Source: Synergistaceae bacterium
GTDB lineage: Bacteria; Synergistota; Synergistia; Synergistales; Aminobacteriaceae
Assembly (NCBI GenBank): GCA_017475805.1
Contig: JAFVEW010000243.1
Coordinates: forward strand, 1 to 8,353
DNA: 8,353 nucleotides
Direction: 5' to 3'
Positions 1 through 8,256 of this stretch are shown here, piece by piece. The notes beneath the pieces were generated by a model. It made no database searches and was not told the DNA's origin. It saw only the letters and a list, made by a program, of their open reading frames with translations. The stretch's first letter is position 1, and each line of letters opens with the position of its first letter. A program made the position numbers and the translations under genes.

Positions 1-519
1 GCCGACCATCGTTGGGTCAAGTGCGCTTGTAGGTTCGTCAAAAAGAATAACATTCGGCTTCATTGCGAGAGCGCGGGCTATCGCTATTCTCTCTTTCTGA
101 CCGCCTGAAAGCTCATGAGGGTAATTCAGCATTTTTTCAGAAAGTCCAACCTGCCTCAAGAGCTTTATACCTTCGTCAAAGGCTTCTTGTTTGCTTACGC
201 CTTTTAATTTCATCGGAGAAAGCATAATATTTTCAATGACCGTGAGATGACCGAACAGATTAAAGGACTGAAAGACCATTCCCATTTTCTGTCTTATTTT
301 GTGAATATTGCATTTAGGCGAAGTTATCTCTTCATCATCAAGAAAAATTTTGCCGCCGTCAGGACGTTCCAAAAGATTTATGCAGCGCAATAAAGTACTT
401 TTTCCAGTTCCCGAAGGCCCAATTACGGAAATAACATCGCCGTCGTGAATTTCTGCGCTGACATCTGAAAGAGGCGTAACGTTCGGATAAACTTTCCTGA
501 CATTTTCCAGCTTAATCAT
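1..519 (-). CDS. ATP-binding subunit of a polar amino-acid ABC importer (partial, 3' end outside window)
   Basis: Translating the minus strand from ATG at 519 gives 173 residues, open to the window edge. Visible motifs are Walker A GPSGTGKST (residues 34-42), Q-loop Gln84 in MVFQ, signature LSGGQ (137-141), Walker B VILFDEP (157-163) and D-loop SALD (165-168). This is the GlnQ/HisP type of the PAAT family, which hydrolyses ATP on the cytoplasmic face to drive import. Family members are usually near 240 residues, so roughly the last 70, including the H-loop histidine, lie beyond position 1. The start is supported by AAGGGGG about 10 bases upstream. The start overlaps the stop of the fused binding/permease gene by 8 bases (ATGATTAA), which points to translational coupling and one transporter. 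The signature is followed by KERIAIARA where QQRVAIARA is usual, a minor variant. The exact substrate cannot be read from this subunit. Confidence 0.95.
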   Translation of the reverse strand, partial: MIKLENVRKVYPNVTPLSDVSAEIHDGDVISVIGPSGTGKSTLLRCINLLERPDGGKIFLDDEEITSPKCNIHKIRQKMGMVFQSFNLFGHLTVIENIMLSPMKLKGVSKQEAFDEGIKLLRQVGLSEKMLNYPHELSGGQKERIAIARALAMKPNVILFDEPTSALDPTMVG

Positions 520-3500
520 GAATTTCAATCCCCCTTAATATATCGCTTTTCGTTCTTTTTTCCGGCCTTATTTTATTATGAATTATTCCAACGATAATAT
601 TTAATATCCCGGCAAGAACAAAATATATTATTGCAACGGCAATCAACGGGAAAAAGGCTTCATAAGTTCTGCTTCTGACGATGTCGCCCATTTTCGTTAA
701 GTCCTGAACTGCGATATAGCCGACAACAGCAGTAGCTTTGATGAGTGCAACAACGGCGGCTTTGTATGACGGCATGAAATGTAATGCTGCCTGAGGAAGT
801 ATAATCGTGAAAAACGCCCGTCTATCAGTGAAACCCAACGCATAAGCCGCTTCAAGCTGTCCGGCGTCTAAGGCTTTTACACCAGAAACTAACATTCCGT
901 AAACGCTCGAACCAAAAGTTAAAGTGAATGCAATCACAGCTACCCAAATTCCGGCTATGTCGACTTTTCCGAAAATAATATAATACAAAATCATTAGCAG
1001 CACGACCATAGGCATACCCTGAATAAGCCATATAAAGAAACGAGTAATTAGGTTAGCGACTATGTTTCCGCCTCTGCATGAAAGATACACAATAAAACCC
1101 AAAATCGTCCCGAAAAAAATCGACATTACAGTTATTATCATTGTGCTTATTATTCCGTCGGCAAAGAGCTTCCATCTGTCTTCACGGATAAAAGTTCTCT
1201 CAAAACTTGCTTTAAGCTCATCAATAAATATATTTCTTTCAGGCTCTACGTTTTTCTCGGTCTCGGCCGATTTCATTACAATCAGCACTATCGGAGTTTC
1301 TGCGTTAGGGACAGGCGAGAATAACATAGTTTCAGCCCGTTCCTCAGTCCGCGTTATGCTGCCGGTTAAATCGCATTTTCCAGTTTTGATTGAGCCTAAA
1401 ATTCCTGCAAAATCCATAGGATAGACTTCAAGCCCGTAACCTTTGGATTTACAGAACATTGATGCAATTTCTATATCATAGCCGATGATTTTATTATCTT
1501 TTACATAAGCGAACGGCATACGCCCCGTATCTATTGCCATTCTAAGAATGCCGTTATCTGCTGGAAGTTTAGAATAATCTTCAATCGTTCGGAGCTGCTC
1601 GTCTTCACTATATATCCATTTATCAGAAAGCTGTTTGATAGTTCCGTTATCCCATAGAGATTTTATGAACTCTGAATATTCGCTGCATATCTTTTGGCCT
1701 TTATCGGAATTAGTAAACGCTGAATAAGTGTACGTGTTTTCAAGAGGTTCAGATATATAAGACATATCTTTATGCTCATGCGTCATATATATCGCTGTAG
1801 GAAGAGTATTTGTGAAAGCTGCAATTTTACCTGTTTGAAGAGCAAGCGTTACGGCACTCAAATCATTAAAATATTCAATCTGAGCATCAGGGATTTTTTC
1901 AGCAACAAAAATATCATGGTTTGCTCCCAAAATAATGCCGATTTTTTTGCCGGATAAATCTTGGAAAGCAGAAGCCTTAGAATTTTCGTCTTTCAAAACT
2001 ATAATAACATTTCCTGCATGAGCTGAAGGAGTTGACGAAAAGAGAGAAACTTGCGCACGTTCCTCAGTGAAATTCATAGATTGAGAAAAATCGCATTTCC
2101 CCGTTTGTACAGCCGCAATCATTCCAGATACGCTGGTCGGAAAAACTTCAAGCCCGTAACCGTGAGCCTCGCAAAATCTTACCGCAATATCCACATCATA
2201 GCCTACAACCCGATTATCTTTAATATAAGCTAAAGGAGGCCAAGAAGTATCAACGCCCATCTTCAGAACACCGTTAGGAGCGGGAAGTTTTGAATAATCT
2301 TTTACAATTTTTTTGCTCTCATCTTTTCCGAGCCATATTGCTTCAAGATTTTTCATAGTGCCGTCGTCCCATAAAGACTTAAGAAATTTGCTGTATTCTT
2401 CGCAAAGTTTTTGACCTTTTTCAGACTTGGTGAATATCGGAGAAAGGTCGCTTGTCCTCAGCCATTGGTCTAAATAAATTAAATCATCGTTGTTATTTAT
2501 CATGTCTTTTGCGGCGAATATAGTACAGGTTAAAGCGTCGACTTTTCCTGTCTTCAATGCAATCAATACGTCAGAGAGAGCGTCAAAATATTCGATTTTT
2601 GCCGTAGGAATTTGTTGAGCTACTAATGTTGCTCCTAAAGTCCCTGTCTGAACTCCTATTTTTTTATTAGCTAAGTCTTCAAATTTTGAGTATTTTCCTA
2701 AATTTTTAGGCTTCGTTTCGGGTTTTCTTACAACGAATGAATTTCCGCTTTTCATATTGGGATAAGAAAACAATACGCTTTCTTCTCTCTCGTCAGTACG
2801 GGTTATCGCGCCCATTCCGAAATCGCATTTTCCAGTCTGCACTGCAGGAATAACGCCGTTAAAGTTCATCGGGATAATTTCGAGGCCGTAGCCGTAAGCC
2901 TCGCAAAATCTCACAGCACAGTCAACGTCATAGCCGACAATCATGTTATCTTTTACATAAGTGCACGGCGGGATTGAAACATCAGCGGCCATTTTTAGAA
3001 CGCCGTTAGGAGCAGGAAGTTTTGAATAATCTTTTATTATTTTTCTGCTTTCATCATTGCCGAACCATATTAAATCAAGTTCTTGAATTGTTCCGTTCTC
3101 CCACTGTTTTTTGAGAAATTCGCTGAATTCATCGCAAAGTTTTCTGCCGTTTTCATTTTTTGCGAATATCGGCGCACCTTCCACATGTGTGAGTTGTTCA
3201 CCGAAAAAAGCTATGCTGTCGTCCTCTGCCATGATTAATTTCGCTATTGGAATGCCCGTACAAATAGCATCAACTTTTCCTGTTTTCAAAGCGGTGAAAG
3301 TGTCAGGTATCGAGTTAAAGTACACGAGCTCTGCTGTAGGCACAAATTTCAACGTAATATCAGGGTGTGTTGAACCCGTTACGACAGCTACTCGTTTTCC
3401 AGCAAGAGCAGATACTGATGAATAAACATCGTCTTTGACCATTAAGGCAATTTCTTCAGTGAAGAGAACATCAGAGAAATCAATTTTTTCTGCACGTTCG

Positions 3501-4213
3501 GGGGGTATATTTAAGTCAGCCATTATGCAATCTATATCACCCGCAGATGCAGCTGTTATAACTCCGCCGTAATCATAATCTCTAAATTCTAATTCAGCTC
3601 CGAGCCAAGCCGCGAGCCTTTTTCCAAGTTCAATATCAAAGCCGGTTAATTTATTTCCTTCGTAATAACTATACGGCATGATGAGGCCAACTGTGCCGAT
3701 TGTAATTTTTAATTCCGGCGACGAAGGCATTTTTATATCAGGCATAGTGAAATTTCTATCGGTTAGCCAACGTTTGCGCATGTCTTGAAAAGTCCCGGAA
3801 TTTTTGAGCTCCGAAATAAATTTATTAATTTTTTCTTTAAGTCCGGGAATTTTTGAAGCCTTTGAAATTCCTATAGCAATTTCGTTTTTCTCTCCGATTG
3901 AGCCGGAAAGAATTTTAACGCCTTTCAAGCCTTCTGAAATCGCAATTTCCATTTGCTGGCGGTCGAAGGCATAAGCGTCGGCTTTTCCCATTTTTACAGC
4001 GTCATAAGCTGGCTGGCCGCTAAGATTAAGAATTTTTGCTTTCGGCAAATCTTTTTTCACAGCGTCAACAAATGCTCCTGATTCAGAAGCTACGATTGTA
4101 ACGGCCTCGTCATTAAGCTGAGAAATCGAATTTATAGCAAAACTTTCTGAAAAACTCCAAAAAATCACGAGCAATATTAACGTAACTTTTTTTAGTAAGC
4201 TCAATAAATTCAC
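512..4213 (-). CDS. Multi-domain fusion: tandem solute-binding lobes plus amino-acid ABC permease
   Basis: The start is GTG at 4213 (1233 residues) because GGGAGGT ends 9 bases upstream; an in-frame TTG at 4231 lies at the edge of that ribosome site and is less likely. Residues 1-26 form a Sec signal peptide ending SFA. An isolated lobe 2 follows (about 30-151), then three full type-3 binding domains (167-386, 403-631, 647-871), an isolated N-terminal lobe 1 (887-982) and a HisM/GlnP-type permease (1014-1219). The permease has five hydrophobic helices and the EAA loop EAAYALGF...IILPQA (about 1121-1142), which contacts the ATPase. Solute-binding domains fused to the permease are known from the GlnP family, usually one or two; here there are three complete plus two half domains. 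The carboxylate-binding Arg of amino-acid binding proteins is present in all four lobe-1 copies (R240, R476, R719, R959). The ammonium-binding Asp appears only in the first lobe (D84). The protein is expected in the membrane with nearly 1000 residues outside. Role as a polar amino-acid importer is inferred; the ligand is unknown. Confidence 0.93.
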   Translation of the reverse strand: MNLLSLLKKVTLILLVIFWSFSESFAINSISQLNDEAVTIVASESGAFVDAVKKDLPKAKILNLSGQPAYDAVKMGKADAYAFDRQQMEIAISEGLKGVKILSGSIGEKNEIAIGISKASKIPGLKEKINKFISELKNSGTFQDMRKRWLTDRNFTMPDIKMPSSPELKITIGTVGLIMPYSYYEGNKLTGFDIELGKRLAAWLGAELEFRDYDYGGVITAASAGDIDCIMADLNIPPERAEKIDFSDVLFTEEIALMVKDDVYSSVSALAGKRVAVVTGSTHPDITLKFVPTAELVYFNSIPDTFTALKTGKVDAICTGIPIAKLIMAEDDSIAFFGEQLTHVEGAPIFAKNENGRKLCDEFSEFLKKQWENGTIQELDLIWFGNDESRKIIKDYSKLPAPNGVLKMAADVSIPPCTYVKDNMIVGYDVDCAVRFCEAYGYGLEIIPMNFNGVIPAVQTGKCDFGMGAITRTDEREESVLFSYPNMKSGNSFVVRKPETKPKNLGKYSKFEDLANKKIGVQTGTLGATLVAQQIPTAKIEYFDALSDVLIALKTGKVDALTCTIFAAKDMINNNDDLIYLDQWLRTSDLSPIFTKSEKGQKLCEEYSKFLKSLWDDGTMKNLEAIWLGKDESKKIVKDYSKLPAPNGVLKMGVDTSWPPLAYIKDNRVVGYDVDIAVRFCEAHGYGLEVFPTSVSGMIAAVQTGKCDFSQSMNFTEERAQVSLFSSTPSAHAGNVIIVLKDENSKASAFQDLSGKKIGIILGANHDIFVAEKIPDAQIEYFNDLSAVTLALQTGKIAAFTNTLPTAIYMTHEHKDMSYISEPLENTYTYSAFTNSDKGQKICSEYSEFIKSLWDNGTIKQLSDKWIYSEDEQLRTIEDYSKLPADNGILRMAIDTGRMPFAYVKDNKIIGYDIEIASMFCKSKGYGLEVYPMDFAGILGSIKTGKCDLTGSITRTEERAETMLFSPVPNAETPIVLIVMKSAETEKNVEPERNIFIDELKASFERTFIREDRWKLFADGIISTMIITVMSIFFGTILGFIVYLSCRGGNIVANLITRFFIWLIQGMPMVVLLMILYYIIFGKVDIAGIWVAVIAFTLTFGSSVYGMLVSGVKALDAGQLEAAYALGFTDRRAFFTIILPQAALHFMPSYKAAVVALIKATAVVGYIAVQDLTKMGDIVRSRTYEAFFPLIAVAIIYFVLAGILNIIVGIIHNKIRPEKRTKSDILRGIEIHD
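1268..4126 (-). repeat. Four tandem lobe-2/lobe-1 units inside the fused transporter gene
   Basis: In permuted register the units are approximately 4126-3416, 3415-2687, 2686-1970 and 1969-1268, each about 235-243 codons. The last three are clearly similar to each other. They share the linker DYSKLPA-NG-L-M between tail and next lobe 1, LWD-GT in the terminal helix, GYD at the ligand side and TGKCD. The first unit is diverged and has a different linker. At DNA level a 34-base stretch at 2271-2304 recurs at 3003-3036 with one mismatch, 732 bases (244 codons) apart. These are in-gene domain duplications, not a mobile element. Confidence 0.8.
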
Positions 4214-4291: not shown

Positions 4292-5095
4292 ATGAAGAAA
4301 AAATTTTTATGTTCTTTGATTTTTATTTTATTATTCACAGCCGTAGCTTTTGCTGAAGTTGTCGGGACTTTGTCCTCAAATGTCGCTGAAAGTTATAAAG
4401 AAAATCTTTTAGCTGCAGTCTTCGATAAAGATTTCAAGTCCGAAGGTACGTCAATGAAATTTTATGATTCGACTATCTTGATGCAAATGGCTCTGAACAA
4501 AGGAGAGATTGATGTTTTTGCTGCTCCTGAGTTCGTCGGCGAATATATGTTGCGAACGAATCCTGAATATAAAATGCGCGGCTTTTTAATCAGCAAAAAT
4601 CCTGTTGCGCTTGCATTCGGTTTTCTTGAAGAAAAAACAGAACTTCGTAACAGATTCAGCAAGATTATTGAAGACATTGAAAACGAAGGCAAAATAGGGA
4701 TATTAGCGAGAGATTTTATAACCGGCCCGAACGCTGCTAATCCTGCGACAGTTGAATTTGAAAAATTTGAAGGAGCTGAAACAATCACCGTCGCAGTAAC
4801 AGGGGATATGCCGCCTCTTGATTACGTTGCTGCTGACGGCTGGCCTGCGGGTTTTAACACAGCTATTCTTGCGGAGATTGGCCGACGTCTTCACATTAAT
4901 ATTAAGATTGTAAACGTTGAAACGGGTTCAAGAGCAATGATTTTGAAATCGGGCCGTGCTGATGTTGTTTTTTGGTTTCAGATTTTTTCAGGCTATGAAT
5001 CTTTTACAAAACAGCCCGACATTCCCGAAGGAGTTATCGTCTCAACGCCTTATTACGGTTGGAATAAAACAATGTTAATAGGCTTGAAGAAATAA
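4292..5095 (+). CDS. Secreted solute-binding-like protein with circularly permuted lobes
   Basis: ATG follows GGAGAGGT by 9 bases. The product has 267 residues. Residues 1-21 are a Sec signal peptide (MKKK, hydrophobic core, AFA before Glu22). Cys7 sits inside the core and is not a lipobox, so a soluble exported protein is expected. Residues about 23-143 resemble lobe 2 and the terminal helix of a type-3 binding protein (MALNKGEIDVFAAP, then NEGKIGILARDF). Residues about 164-267 resemble the N-terminal lobe 1 (ITVAVTGDMPPLDYV, AGFNTAILAEIG, SGRADVVFW, ending STPYYGWNKTMLIG). The lobe order is therefore inverted relative to ordinary family members, as in the units of the divergent fused transporter. 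The usual ligand Arg (TPER motif) is not seen near residues 228-240, and Pro79 stands where the ligand Asp is expected. It could bind a different solute, act as a sensor, or have lost binding. The gene is monocistronic, with a terminator 37 bases downstream. Confidence 0.85.
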   Translation: MKKKFLCSLIFILLFTAVAFAEVVGTLSSNVAESYKENLLAAVFDKDFKSEGTSMKFYDSTILMQMALNKGEIDVFAAPEFVGEYMLRTNPEYKMRGFLISKNPVALAFGFLEEKTELRNRFSKIIEDIENEGKIGILARDFITGPNAANPATVEFEKFEGAETITVAVTGDMPPLDYVAADGWPAGFNTAILAEIGRRLHINIKIVNVETGSRAMILKSGRADVVFWFQIFSGYESFTKQPDIPEGVIVSTPYYGWNKTMLIGLKK

Positions 5096-5270: not shown

Positions 5271-5333
5271 CATTAGAAATTTATTTTTTAGCGCAAATGT
5301 TTTTAATTTTTATTGTACAAAGCAGGTGATTTT

Positions 5334-5651
5334 TTGAGTATTTTATTAAAGATTTCTCTTAGCATTTTAGTCACTTTGCTATTAACCTTCAAAATTATTG
5401 ATTCTTCTGAGTTAAAGAACTTTGATACAGATGATCATGATAAGGCGAAATTTTTTCTTGCAGTAGTTGGTGTGGTATTTGTGGGAATGTTAGCGATTAC
5501 GTACATGGTACTTTCTTTTTTAGAAGGTACTTTTTTCACAGAAGATACGCCCAAAATCGAAGAAACACCGCCGGCAATTCAACAGCAGGCCGAGCAGCCC
5601 AAGCCAACGGAAAATATTGACCTAATGGGCATTATAAAAAAATCAAAATAA
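5334..5651 (+). CDS. Small two-helix membrane protein with Pro/Gln-rich tail (paralogue 1)
   Basis: I do not recognise this family. The start is taken as TTG at 5334, 4 bases after AGGTGA (5324-5329), giving 105 residues. An upstream in-frame TTG at 5313 would place the ribosome site inside the gene. Hydrophobic helices span about residues 3-23 and 40-63, separated by an acidic loop (NFDTDDHD). The tail (64-105) is polar: EDTPKIEETPPAIQQQ, then AEQPKP, then NIDLMGIIKKSK at the very end. Tail and terminal peptide are shared with the next gene, 19 bases downstream, so the two are tandem paralogues in one operon. With two helices both ends should lie on the same side, probably the cytoplasm. The repeated C-terminal peptide looks like a docking or sorting motif, which is inference. 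The function is unknown. Confidence 0.75.
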   Translation: MSILLKISLSILVTLLLTFKIIDSSELKNFDTDDHDKAKFFLAVVGVVFVGMLAITYMVLSFLEGTFFTEDTPKIEETPPAIQQQAEQPKPTENIDLMGIIKKSK

Positions 5652-6051
5652 CAGGGAGCAGGTGATTTTTTTGGAAGAATTTTTCATGTCTGTACATTAT
5701 ATTGCTGGTGTTGTTGGTTCTGTACTTATAGCTATGTTCATTGCTGCCAGTGCCGGGACAATAGCTATGTTTGTTTTTGATAATGATGCAGGATATTTGA
5801 TTACGTCTGTAATATTTATACTGTCTATGTATCTGCTGGTATATCGGAATGTTCTCGGTTTTTTACCAGAAGATACGTCCAAAGTCGAAGAAACGCCGCC
5901 TGCAATATCGCAACAGTACGAACAACCTAAGCCGATAAATGAAACGCCGCTCGTAGTGCAACAACAGCCCGAAGAGTCAAAGTCAGATGACGTTGAGGTG
6001 GACGTTGACATAAACATCGACCTAATGGGAATTATAAGGAAATCAAAATAA
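5541..6051 (+). repeat. Direct repeat of the tail-coding segments of the two paralogues
   Basis: The segment from 5541 (GAAGATACGCCCAAAATCG) recurs from 5869 (GAAGATACGTCCAAAGTCG) through the ETPPAI and EQPKP codons. The final 39 bases of the first gene (5613-5651) match the final 39 of the second (6013-6051) at 34 positions, exactly 400 bases apart. The offset grows from 328 to 400 because the second copy has an internal tail expansion. This shows tandem gene duplication with tail conservation. Confidence 0.75.
5671..6051 (+). CDS. Small two-helix membrane protein with Pro/Gln-rich tail (paralogue 2)
   Basis: Unrecognised family, paralogous to the gene before it. The start is taken as TTG at 5671, 5 bases after AGGTGA (5660-5665), mirroring the first copy; it gives 126 residues. 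An ATG at 5686 is a possible alternative with a poorer site, and GTG at 5662 lies inside the Shine-Dalgarno. Hydrophobic helices span about residues 8-36 and 41-63. The tail is longer than in paralogue 1 because the ETPPAISQQ-EQPKP block is followed by a second, degenerate copy (ETPLVVQQQPEESK) and an acidic stretch (DDVEVDVDI). It ends NIDLMGIIRKSK, matching the other copy in 11 of 12 residues. The membrane helices are much less alike than the tails. It lies 23 bases before the coiled-coil gene. The function is unknown. Confidence 0.77.
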   Translation: MEEFFMSVHYIAGVVGSVLIAMFIAASAGTIAMFVFDNDAGYLITSVIFILSMYLLVYRNVLGFLPEDTSKVEETPPAISQQYEQPKPINETPLVVQQQPEESKSDDVEVDVDINIDLMGIIRKSK

Positions 6052-6074
6052 TTATAGAAAGGTGAGATTTTTTA

Positions 6075-7649
6075 ATGAAACATAATGTGAAATTTTTTGC
6101 TGTAATTATCTTTGCGGTTTTGTTTTTGTCTTCGCAAGCTAAATCTGCCGAACATATATTGCCTCAAAATATTTCTAACAACTGGAACGAACTGACGGGG
6201 ACTCTTTCGTTTGCTTTTTCAAAGCGCGATATGCCTGTAAAGCCTACGGTGAAAAACAACGCGAGTCTGAAAGCTCAGGAAGAACGTTTGAGGGATAGTT
6301 TAGGAGCTTCAAATTTTTGGGGAAGTTCAAATTTTGAGAACGAACTGACAAAATGGACGGAAGAATTTGAAACTGGAGCAGAAGCCGAGTCATCCAGGAT
6401 TGCAGACCTTAAAGCAGAAAGGTTTAATCTTATAAAAAGACGCGCAAACATTCTTGAGCATGAGTCCTCGTGGTTCGGCAAAAAGAAACGTGAAGAAGAC
6501 GCGATTAACGCAAGGCTTGATGAAATTGGAAACGAACTTTCAGCCCGAGAAGCAAAGCTCAATAGAATAAATCAAGCAGTTTTAAGACAGCTTAAAGCAA
6601 CCCTTAACGAATCAGACGATAAAGCATCAAGTGCCCGTTACAAATCGGCATTCGCAAAACTCGAGAAACAAATTCAGGATAATATTTCCGCTCTTGAACT
6701 TGAAAATGAACGTCTACGCGAAAATTCAATCAATAAACTTCTTGATAAAGCCATTGAGCTTCTCACGTCAGAAGAAGTTAAAAATTTCCGTCATAAAAAT
6801 GAAGCATTGAAACAGACCCTTCGTAATCTTCAAATTGAATTAGATACACTTCAAAACCAGCAGTTAAGCGCAAGAGGAAACGATTTAGACAAGATAACAA
6901 AACGCATCACTGAAATTGAAACTCAAATTCCAATGACGAAACAGCGCATGAAAGATTCAAAGGCTGAAATGATAGAAACATTAGAAAAGACGGACTTAAA
7001 ACTGACTTCTTCACAATGGAATCATCTTTTCACTTTTGTTACGGGAGATGATTATCTTCAAAACGCGACGATTTTTGAAAACGTTAAATCGGTAATGGAA
7101 CAGCTTGCTTCTCTTATGCGGGCAAATCAGGGAAATCTTGAAATCGAAAACCGTTATCTTGGTATACGAATCGTACTTTATGACCTTTTGATATACATGT
7201 ACAATGATTTTATAACGAAAATTGATAATAAATATATTCCACAGCTCAACAAACTTTTAACTGAAGCAGAAGGAACTTACAAAATGTCCCTTGAAGCTGC
7301 GAAACGCTATAACTCCGATCGAAATAAAAAAGCCGCAGAGAGAGCTGTTCAAACGACAGAAAAATTACTGAAGGCCGGAAAATTGTATGTCGATGTCCTG
7401 AAACGTCAGCGTGAAAGTGCGGAAAGAACTTTGTCAATGCTTCGAGAAGATCGCGATTTTCAAGAACTGTATTATCAAGTTGAACAGAGTGCCAGCGCGA
7501 TGGTTATTTTGATTGAAACAGGGCTTGAACATTTTGAATCAATACAAAAATTATCAATTCCCGAACTTGAAATGCTTGATGATAATGCCGTAGCTGATGA
7601 GTTAGATACAATTAACGAGCAGCTTCAAGCGATGACAGCGTCAGATTAA
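6075..7649 (+). CDS. Exported coiled-coil protein of unknown function
   Basis: ATG at 6075 follows AAAGGTGA (6058-6065) by 9 bases; the product has 524 residues. Residues 1-25 form a Sec signal peptide (MKHNVK, hydrophobic core, AKSA before Glu26). A linker follows to about residue 100. Two long charged helical stretches with heptad-like spacing and many Glu/Lys/Arg then run at about 104-175 and 185-305. Residues about 310-380 form a less charged helical part (SSQWNHLFTFVTGDDYLQN; YLGIRIVLYDLLIYMYNDF). More helices follow to about 490 and the end is acidic. There is no lipobox, cysteine or transmembrane helix after the signal, so a periplasmic or surface location is expected. I do not recognise the family. 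It is the last gene of the operon with the two small membrane proteins (23-base gap) and is followed by a strong terminator. A membrane-associated scaffold or spacer assembly is a guess from architecture only. Confidence 0.85.
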   Translation: MKHNVKFFAVIIFAVLFLSSQAKSAEHILPQNISNNWNELTGTLSFAFSKRDMPVKPTVKNNASLKAQEERLRDSLGASNFWGSSNFENELTKWTEEFETGAEAESSRIADLKAERFNLIKRRANILEHESSWFGKKKREEDAINARLDEIGNELSAREAKLNRINQAVLRQLKATLNESDDKASSARYKSAFAKLEKQIQDNISALELENERLRENSINKLLDKAIELLTSEEVKNFRHKNEALKQTLRNLQIELDTLQNQQLSARGNDLDKITKRITEIETQIPMTKQRMKDSKAEMIETLEKTDLKLTSSQWNHLFTFVTGDDYLQNATIFENVKSVMEQLASLMRANQGNLEIENRYLGIRIVLYDLLIYMYNDFITKIDNKYIPQLNKLLTEAEGTYKMSLEAAKRYNSDRNKKAAERAVQTTEKLLKAGKLYVDVLKRQRESAERTLSMLREDRDFQELYYQVEQSASAMVILIETGLEHFESIQKLSIPELEMLDDNAVADELDTINEQLQAMTASD

Positions 7650-7926: not shown

Positions 7927-8256
7927 TTATTTGCAGGTCACATTTTTATAATTTTTTCCAAATTCTTCCATAGCAATCAGCAAAGGCTTCAAACTCAAGC
8001 CAAGCTCGCTCAAAGAATATTCTACGCTTCGAGGCCGTGTCTCATAAATTTTTCGTATTACTAATCCGTCTTCTTCCATTGAACGTAGGCTTTCAGTTAA
8101 AACTTTGTGGCTTATGGGAGATAAATTCTTTTTTAATTCGTTAAATCGCCAAGAGCGCGCTAATAAATTTCTTAATATTAATAATTTCCATTTGCTTCCG
8201 ATTAATTTGACAGTCGTAGCGACAGGGCAGTCAGGCATTTCGTTTTTTGAAAGCAT
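7927..8256 (-). CDS. HxlR-family winged helix-turn-helix transcriptional regulator
   Basis: The product is 109 residues, the normal size for this family. Hallmarks are CPVATTVKLIGSKWKLLIL (from Cys10), RFNELKKNL, then ISHKVLTESLRSMEEDGLV (recognition helix and wing approach) and RSVEYSLSELG. HxlR/YodB/HypR-type proteins bind DNA as dimers and often respond to electrophiles, aldehydes or oxidants through an N-terminal cysteine. Cys10 is at the position seen in such sensors, but Cys107 near the C terminus is the only other one. ATG at 8256 is preceded by AAGAGGTGA about 10 bases upstream; M7 is a weaker alternative. The gene converges on the coiled-coil operon and does not look co-transcribed with anything in the window. 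Its target may be itself or a divergent gene beyond the right edge, as is common for this family. Confidence 0.95.
   Translation of the reverse strand: MLSKNEMPDCPVATTVKLIGSKWKLLILRNLLARSWRFNELKKNLSPISHKVLTESLRSMEEDGLVIRKIYETRPRSVEYSLSELGLSLKPLLIAMEEFGKNYKNVTCK

What the first reader, a model, noticed from the sequence alone, without database searches (positions are those of the whole stretch)
512..4213. ABC permease fused to about four circularly permuted solute-binding units
Directly visible: the protein starts, right after the signal peptide, with a lobe 2 lacking its lobe 1, and ends its external part with a lobe 1 lacking its lobe 2, with three complete domains between. The similarity pattern (A and first lobe 1 diverged; everything from the first domain's lobe 2 onward mutually similar) fits duplication of a lobe-2/lobe-1 unit and not of the canonical domain. 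Known GlnP-type fusions carry one or two canonical domains. Two foldings are possible: three canonical domains with the N-terminal and C-terminal orphan lobes pairing into a fourth, or four permuted domains in a row. A permease dimer would then carry eight binding sites.
Basis: partly seen in the sequence, partly recalled or inferred. Interest (0 to 1): 0.75.

Follow-up and report, generated by a model that had tools for sequence, protein, structure and literature searches.

The report
Transporter with circularly permuted binding arrays
This gut-bacterial nutrient transporter carries four ligand-grasping modules in one chain, each with its two halves in swapped order, and relatives carry from one to twelve such modules that seem to be shuffled like cassettes.

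Summary
Confirmed. ORF 512-4213 (-) encodes a signal peptide, four lobe2-lobe1 units and one GlnP-type ABC permease domain. The open question, which lobes pair, is answered: each lobe 2 pairs with the lobe 1 that FOLLOWS it. In an AlphaFold2 model of the ectodomain, permuted segments (units 2 and 4) superpose on solved structures at 2.8-4.7 A; canonical-order segments match only lobe by lobe, at 19-23 A. Covariation stands out only in the permuted pairing. A model trained on single-unit proteins picks the following lobe 1 for 406 of 631 lobes 2, the preceding one for 72. Between arrays, lobe 2 is co-inherited with the following lobe 1 alone in 1,919 cases, with the preceding one alone in 15. 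Relatives with 1-8 and once 12 units occur in Synergistota, Bacillota and one Actinomycetota MAG, mostly ruminant-gut MAGs. Free-standing permuted proteins also sit in binding protein-permease-ATPase operons; the permutation probably arose more than once. Ligands are untested. I found no description in print.

The parts
512..4213 (-). whole gene: 1,233-aa ABC permease with four circularly permuted substrate-binding units, GTG start
4136..4213 (-). signal peptide (residues 1-26)
   Evidence: read from the translation; no predictor was run
3716..4135 (-). unit 1, lobe 2 + C-terminal segment (residues 27-166), diverged
3428..3715 (-). unit 1, lobe 1 (residues 167-262), diverged; keeps the motif Arg
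3002..3427 (-). unit 2, lobe 2 + C-terminal segment (263-404)
   Evidence: pairs with 405-500 in the AF2 model, judged from the structure alignments
2714..3001 (-). unit 2, lobe 1 (405-500)
2270..2713 (-). unit 3, lobe 2 + C-terminal segment (501-648)
1988..2269 (-). unit 3, lobe 1 (649-742)
1556..1987 (-). unit 4, lobe 2 + C-terminal segment (743-886)
   Evidence: pairs with 887-985 in the AF2 model, judged from the two OpuAC rows
1259..1555 (-). unit 4, lobe 1 (887-985), followed by no lobe 2
515..1258 (-). linker and GlnP-type transmembrane domain (986-1233), PF00528 at 1041-1222
   Evidence: PDB 4yms permease chain matches 1015-1216, E 2e-24
1..528 (-). ABC ATPase (GlnQ-like), overlaps the end of the permease gene, cut by the window edge
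   Evidence: an ATPase follows directly in 61 of 77 testable permease ORFs of the 80 genome loci
4292..5095 (+). divergent gene for a free-standing single permuted unit, 267 aa (signal peptide, lobe 2 + C-segment about 4355-4774, lobe 1 about 4775-5092)
   Evidence: AF2 pLDDT 89.7, pTM 0.83; structure matches

Best explanation
The gene encodes the membrane subunit of a polar-amino-acid-type ABC importer. Its external part is a string of four Venus-flytrap binding domains, each circularly permuted: the chain enters lobe 2, crosses the hinge once into the C-terminal helices that pack on lobe 1, builds lobe 1, and leaves through the strand that in canonical proteins leads into lobe 2. That strand here runs into the next unit's lobe 2 or, after unit 4, into the transmembrane domain. 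Two copies of the permease with two copies of the downstream ATPase would make the importer, with eight tethered sites in all. Each unit captures a solute and offers it to the same pore; units of different sequence probably widen the range of substrates. Shown here: unit order, gene order, permuted pairing by model, covariation and co-inheritance, and that relatives differ by whole lobe2-lobe1 cassettes. Inferred: homodimer, import direction, amino-acid-like ligands (the lobe-1 motif Arg is kept in all four units), different specificities.
For: Architecture (21)nT in 111 of 120 listed relatives, own protein included, 76 of 80 fused ORFs in genome loci, and 117 of 120 in the third search (114 2121T, 3 21T). 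AF2 ectodomain pLDDT 87.3: model 242-475 (unit 2) and 726-959 (unit 4) match OpuAC over 204-208 residues at 4.5-4.7 A; unit 2 also matches MetQ-, BvgS- and other binding-domain structures at 2.8-3.7 A over 157-175 residues; canonical-order stretches (e.g. 378-561) give 19-23 A over 161-179 residues. DCA on 668 lobes 1 flanked by lobes 2: the permuted pairing has 104 inter-lobe pairs in the top 231 couplings (best z 9.4), the canonical one 0 (best z 3.2), two null pairings with 379 pairs each 0 and 1. Single-unit-trained partner prediction 406 of 631 following against 72 preceding. Co-inheritance 1,919 against 15. Lobe-1 and lobe-2 trees of 11 chosen arrays pair the window's units with the same units of other arrays even where positions differ. 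ATPase directly downstream in 61 of 77. Free-standing 21 genes beside permease and ATPase genes: L108, L123, L124, L131, L136, L143, L149, L156.
Against: The AF2 pTM is 0.37, so the arrangement of units relative to each other is not determined; the alignment had 45 sequences, and the structure rows cover units 2 and 4 only (unit 4 by OpuAC alone). Phylogeny contributes to partner prediction: a model trained on the canonical pairing recovers it in 301 of 495 (chance 105), so I rely on the single-unit-trained model and on the DCA contrast. The pairs are not independent. In window units 2-4 the lobe-2 Asp is replaced (G, T, T), though it is Asp in 35-43 of 53 n=4 proteins, so those units may not bind ordinary amino acids, or may not bind at all. 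No experiment exists.
Confidence: 0.88

Rival explanations
1. Three canonical binding domains (lobe 1 of unit i with lobe 2 of unit i+1), with the first lobe 2 and last lobe 1 closing into a fourth domain.
For: Each internal lobe1-lobe2 stretch reads as a full canonical domain in sequence (PDB hits such as 4zv1 over 170-385), with the canonical hinge connection intact.
Against: Canonical-order stretches superpose only lobe by lobe in the AF2 model, 19-23 A. No covariation above null. The first lobe 2 picks the last lobe 1 in 0 of 136 with the array-trained model and 7 of 136 with the single-unit-trained one. Arrays share lobe2-lobe1 cassettes, not lobe1-lobe2 ones. Single-unit fusions exist.
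Confidence: 0.05
2. Permuted pairing across the dimer: lobes of one permease copy close on lobes of the other (domain swap).
For: Covariation cannot tell cis from trans between identical chains (inference).
Against: The free-standing unit is modelled as one compact bilobed protein with high confidence, and its lobes are joined by a continuous hinge strand (E93-112). No positive evidence for a swap.
Confidence: 0.05
3. A sensor or a decayed array rather than an importer: only some units bind, and the others are spacers.
For: The lobe-2 Asp is lost in window units 2-4. Free-standing proteins of the P0002 type have lost both motif residues (Arg column V/I/L/K/T in 119 of 119; Asp column Pro in 117 of 119) yet are kept, in places as tandem runs.
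Against: The permease domain is conserved over its length and an ATPase gene follows directly in 61 of 77 permease ORFs. All four units keep the lobe-1 Arg. Units keep strong inter-lobe covariation.
Confidence: 0.15

Closest known systems
GlnP/GlnPQ, substrate-binding domains fused to a polar-amino-acid permease
   Same: SBP_bac_3 domains N-terminal of a GlnP-type permease, separate GlnQ-like ATPase; GlnPQ has two domains in tandem and four sites per dimer (PMC8025302, passages).
   Different: GlnP domains are canonical (lobe1-lobe2) and number two; here they are permuted and number 1-8, once 12.
TpMglB-2 (Tp0684), a naturally circularly permuted glucose-binding protein, proposed 'Type Ic'
   Same: A natural circular permutation of an ABC binding protein that still binds ligand and changes shape (PMC4990184, abstract and passages).
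   Different: Type I fold, permuted inside the N lobe, single unit, not described there as fused to a permease. Here Type II fold, cut at the lobe1-to-lobe2 hinge, tandem and fused.
OpuAC of Bacillus subtilis (glycine betaine-binding protein)
   Same: Top structural match of both models and aligned nearly end to end (204-214 residues), so the lobe order appears shared. That OpuAC is permuted relative to ProX is recalled and was not found in print here.
   Different: A different sequence family (no PF04069 match in P0004 or P0002), betaine ligands, single unit in the solved chains.
BvgS/EvgS tandem Venus-flytrap sensors
   Same: Tandem binding-protein-like domains in one chain; structural hits.
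   Different: Sensor kinases with no ABC permease. The words permut- and swap do not occur in the BvgS structure paper (PMC4352136, word search of its text).

Membership tests
SBP_bac_3 / Type II amino-acid-type binding domains | sequence match to PF00497 above the curated cut-off | tested here: met
   343.3 bits against 26.4, five stretches; P0002 46.2 bits
SBP_bac_3 / Type II amino-acid-type binding domains | bilobed Venus-flytrap fold | tested here: met
   AF2 models matched to solved binding proteins
SBP_bac_3 / Type II amino-acid-type binding domains | order lobe 1 - lobe 2 - C-terminal segment of lobe 1 | tested here: not met
   lobe 2 + C-segment - lobe 1
GlnP-type SBD-permease fusion | polar-amino-acid permease domain | tested here: met
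   PF00528 70.2 bits against 26.4; against: TIGR01726 36.6 bits, below its 42.2 cut-off, and the listed NCBIfam permease equivalogs below theirs
GlnP-type SBD-permease fusion | separate GlnQ-like ATPase encoded alongside | tested here: met
   overlapping ATPase ORF 1-528; best NCBIfam model GlnQ, 213.8 bits, below its 379 cut-off, for an ORF truncated by the window
GlnP-type SBD-permease fusion | canonical binding domains, one or two in number (number recalled; two in PMC8025302) | tested here: not met
   four permuted units
OpuAC family (PF04069) | sequence match to PF04069 | tested here: not met
   no match in P0004 or P0002 at E up to 0.1; weak sub-threshold matches in L136 and L003
OpuAC family (PF04069) | betaine/choline ligands | not testable with these tools
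   no binding data
TpMglB-2-like Type Ic proteins | Type I fold permuted within the N lobe | tested here: not met
   sequence and structure matches are to Type II amino-acid-type proteins, and the cut lies at the hinge

The most novel reading that the evidence does not exclude
Circular permutation at the hinge has arisen repeatedly in amino-acid binding proteins. By placing lobe 1 at the C-terminus next to the permease gene, it created a cassette that can be fused by losing one stop codon, then duplicated, shuffled and diversified into arrays of up to twelve flytraps (24 per dimer). Gut bacteria would use these as multi-substrate scavenging importers.
Probability: 0.45. Interest if true: 0.82.

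Novelty: new variant of a known kind. Interest (0 to 1): 0.72.

Why it matters
Automatic annotation sees only 'several SBP_bac_3 domains plus a permease' and hides the permuted order. If right, this is a large, unrecognised class of importer in ruminant gut bacteria, with more tethered binding sites per pore than I know of elsewhere. It gives a direct test of whether more tethered domains mean faster uptake or wider substrate range. Gene arrangements that look transitional (canonical 12|T|N, permuted 21|T|N, fused 21T|N, arrays) make the origin of a circular permutation and its later amplification traceable in living genomes.

Tried and rejected
Considered and rejected: a hidden lobe 1 upstream (no room); fusion by assembly error (the same order in 111, 117 and 76 listed proteins or ORFs of three searches, some possibly the same genes; and two 21T genes, L084 and L085, in the genome of the named record Butyrivibrio sp. 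Su6); a profile artefact (canonical proteins are called '12').

Results against or outside the pattern. Of 120 relatives: 6 begin with lobe 1, starting inside the domain without a signal peptide (judged truncated, contig ends not checked); 2 lack the permease; 1 (P0112) has an internal deletion. In one search: 1 212121T that begins inside a lobe 2, 1 12121T whose start retains the tail of a lobe 2, and 1 22121T with a deletion. In one search: 4 of 80 fused ORFs are only '1T', and one of the 80 loci (L068) shows only T at a contig edge. Of 120 free-standing relatives 3 lacked a recognisable lobe 2. Sixteen of 77 permease ORFs had no ATPase immediately downstream (4 more lay too near a contig end to test); one of the sixteen (L013) is an unfused permease, in L045 the ATPase lies upstream, and in L023 it starts 79 bases before the permease ends, outside my limit.

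Rows dropped before counts: the tree used 86 of 121 units (rows over 70% identical removed; only the first 6 arrays each of 2121T and 212121T sampled). One search used 11 arrays that I chose. The AF2 alignment A1 used 44 relatives with n=4. Searches used the 136 arrays with complete order and at least 3 units. In one search whole clusters of these arrays were held out, but two-unit and incomplete arrays stayed in the training set.

The control showed that partner prediction trained on arrays is inflated by phylogeny; I rely on the single-unit-trained version.

Structure search: Foldseek TM-scores for the long model are low, as expected if units are flexibly placed; a family absent from the listed rows is not excluded. 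A PDB profile search with the ATPase tail gave nothing below E 0.3. Neighbouring window genes 5313-7649 matched nothing by tblastn in the loci fetched.

Literature: ten searches of an open-licence library; listings only, except for the papers named with their calls. Subscription papers are mostly not covered. The OpuA paper PMC2861598 holds none of the words permut-, dislocat-, domain swap, swapped or topology (word search). [quoted passage not shown]

Full report
WHAT IS THERE. The minus-strand ORF 512-4213 (GTG start, 1,233 aa) has a signal peptide, about 960 external residues and a C-terminal permease domain. Lobe-1 and lobe-2 profiles built from its own segments and refined on its relatives read it as 2-1-2-1-2-1-2-1-T, with boundaries 30-166, 169-261, 267-401, 404-497, 511-645, 648-741, 750-885, 888-981 and 1011-1233. 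Canonical binding proteins in the fetched loci are read as '12' by the same profiles. There is no space upstream for a missing lobe 1.

THE NEIGHBOUR. The divergent gene 4292-5095 encodes a 267-aa protein with a signal-peptide-like start, one lobe 2 and then one lobe 1. AlphaFold2 with 111 sequences models it with mean pLDDT 89.7 and pTM 0.83. The model matches solved binding proteins: best OpuAC (204-214 residues aligned), whereas canonical amino-acid binding proteins align over about 160-180 residues, nearly the whole model (from about residue 15-21 to 267) falling on about the first 190-215 residues of the canonical chain; I read this as lobes exchanged. It has 638 relatives at E 1e-3 or better among 1,959 candidates; 117 of the 120 listed are '21'.

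THE FAMILY. One search found 1,930 relatives among the 7,996 candidates scored; the 120 listed, the window's own protein among them, are (21)nT with n=2 (2), 3 (6), 4 (48), 5 (34), 6 (12), 7 (9); two have no T, six begin in mid-domain, one has a deletion. A search with a single-unit fusion from Butyrivibrio sp. Su6 found 3,627 relatives among 7,997 scored; of the 120 listed 114 are 2121T and 3 are 21T. Their 80 fused ORFs are 21T (19), 2121T (28, and one more fused to an ATPase), n=3 (14), 4 (6), 5 (3), 6 (1), 7 (1), 8 (2), 12 (1; 3,249 aa, L003, in which Pfam counts 12 SBP_bac_3 stretches) and four fragments '1T'. In 299 genomes drawn from the phylum of the Butyrivibrio genome, 280 have some match to the last lobe 1 plus permease profile, but nearly all of the listed matches cover the permease part alone; full-length ones are few.

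WHICH LOBES PAIR. (1) The AF2 model of residues 27-1000 (45 sequences, pLDDT 87.3, pTM 0.37) was compared with solved structures. Permuted stretches match as wholes: 242-475 on OpuAC at 4.6 A over 205 residues, 726-959 at 4.7 A over 208, and 245-475 on MetQ-like, BvgS-type and other binding domains at 2.8-3.7 A over 157-175. Canonical-order stretches (for example 378-561, 375-562, 95-318) match with rmsd 19-23 A over 161-179 residues: each lobe fits, the pair does not. (2) Direct coupling analysis of 668 lobes 1 that have a lobe 2 on both sides: the permuted pairing gives 104 of the top 231 couplings between lobes (best z 9.4), the canonical pairing 0 (best z 3.2), and pairings one unit further away (379 pairs each) 0 and 1. 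(3) Partner prediction over 136 arrays with at least 3 units, 631 lobes 2: trained on arrays with clusters held out, 606 choose the following lobe 1 and 5 the preceding one (chance 136). The control trained on canonical pairs recovers these in 301 of 495 (chance 105), so shared ancestry helps any such model. Trained only on 140 single-unit proteins, which hold no positional information, the score is 406 following, 72 preceding, 153 other, and for the first lobe 2, 110 of 136 choose the first lobe 1 and 7 the last; trained on one- and two-unit proteins it is 510 following and 48 preceding. (4) Between arrays, 3,543 confident lobe-2 matches: both neighbouring lobes 1 are co-inherited in 1,572, the following one alone in 1,919, the preceding one alone in 15, neither in 37 (pairs are not independent). 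Lobe-1 and lobe-2 trees of 11 chosen arrays agree: window unit 4 lies nearest to unit 7 of P0003, unit 4 of P0008 and unit 2 of P0012 in both. The lobe2-lobe1 cassette is therefore, on this evidence, both the folding unit and the unit of duplication and shuffling.

ORIGIN. Loci from other genomes show a series: canonical 12|T|N genes (L114, L115, L117, L118, L119, L125; in L116 the order is T|N|12), permuted 21|T|N genes (L108, L123, L124, L131, L136, L149, L156, and 21,21,21,T,N in L161; L126 has 21|T with no ATPase seen), fused 21T|N (L110, L111, L121, L122), arrays, and one canonical fusion 12T (L127). In L108, L123, L124 and L143 the permuted gene and the permease gene are in the same frame, the latter 3-15 bases after the former's stop. 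In an order-normalised tree of 86 units, 15 of them canonical, the fused units form one side of a branch (SH-aLRT 85), but neither the canonical nor the free-standing permuted proteins do: branches with support of 95 or more force at least two changes of either label, and permuted L136 groups with canonical L118 and L125 (96). Their sequences show the swap plainly, and L123 and L124 end with a left-over start of lobe 2, as expected if permutation came from tandem duplication and loss of the ends (interpretation).

FUNCTION. The permease domain matches polar-amino-acid permeases (PF00528; PDB 4yms; NCBIfam permease models, below their cut-offs). An ATPase gene follows directly in 61 of 77 testable permease ORFs and overlaps in the window. 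The lobe-1 Arg that in this family binds the ligand carboxylate (role recalled) is present in all four units and in 47-53 of 53 n=4 proteins per position. The lobe-2 Asp that binds the amino group (recalled) is present in 35-43 of 53 but in the window only in unit 1. I therefore expect amino-acid-like ligands for unit 1 and changed or lost ligands for units 2-4. Free-standing P0002-like proteins lack both residues in the profile alignment, so their ligand is open.

KNOWN OR NEW. GlnPQ has two canonical tethered domains and four sites (PMC8025302, passages). A natural permutation of a Type I binding protein is published (PMC4990184, abstract and passages). OpuAC appears to share the lobe order here. 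None of the listings of ten searches of the open library showed permuted amino-acid binding domains, tandem or fused. I file it as a new variant of SBD-fused ABC importers.

Noticed in passing
L001:10739-11104 and 62 further loci: 63 ATPase ORFs of 350-395 aa, one from each of 63 of the 80 loci, carry a conserved C-terminal extension of about 120 aa; three such ATPases had no Pfam hit there. By eye it resembles a degenerate GHKL/anti-sigma (HATPase_c_2) domain; a PDB profile search found nothing. The window cuts its ATPase before this part.
   Followed up: partly
L161, L162, L163 (genomes of Synergistota loci): Runs of three or four free-standing permuted binding-protein genes (two runs of three in L163), nearly head to tail; up to 19 matches to P0002 in one genome, some of them weak matches to other binding-protein genes.
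   Followed up: partly
L003:325-10071: A 3,249-aa protein with 12 permuted units and one permease domain, in a goat-rumen MAG.
   Followed up: partly
window 5313-5651 and 5662-6051: Two small proteins with hydrophobic starts and similar tails (..EETPPAI.QQ..EQPKP.. and ..NIDLMGII(K/R)KSK), apparently a tandem duplication, no family.
   Followed up: no
window 6075-7649: 524-aa protein with a signal-peptide-like start, by eye probably coiled-coil, with no Pfam family over the cut-off and no NCBIfam family.
   Followed up: no
window 7927-8256 (-): HxlR-family regulator (PF01638).
   Followed up: no
P0018 and P0126: A four-unit permease and a free-standing unit are both listed with a longest contig of 8,368 bases, hinting that the divergent pair of the window is conserved. 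In L158, around the best-scoring free-standing relative in the 12 genomes searched, no fused gene lies within about 9 kb.
   Followed up: partly
L123, L124 C-termini: Permuted binding proteins end in a left-over start of lobe 2, a possible scar of permutation by duplication.
   Followed up: partly
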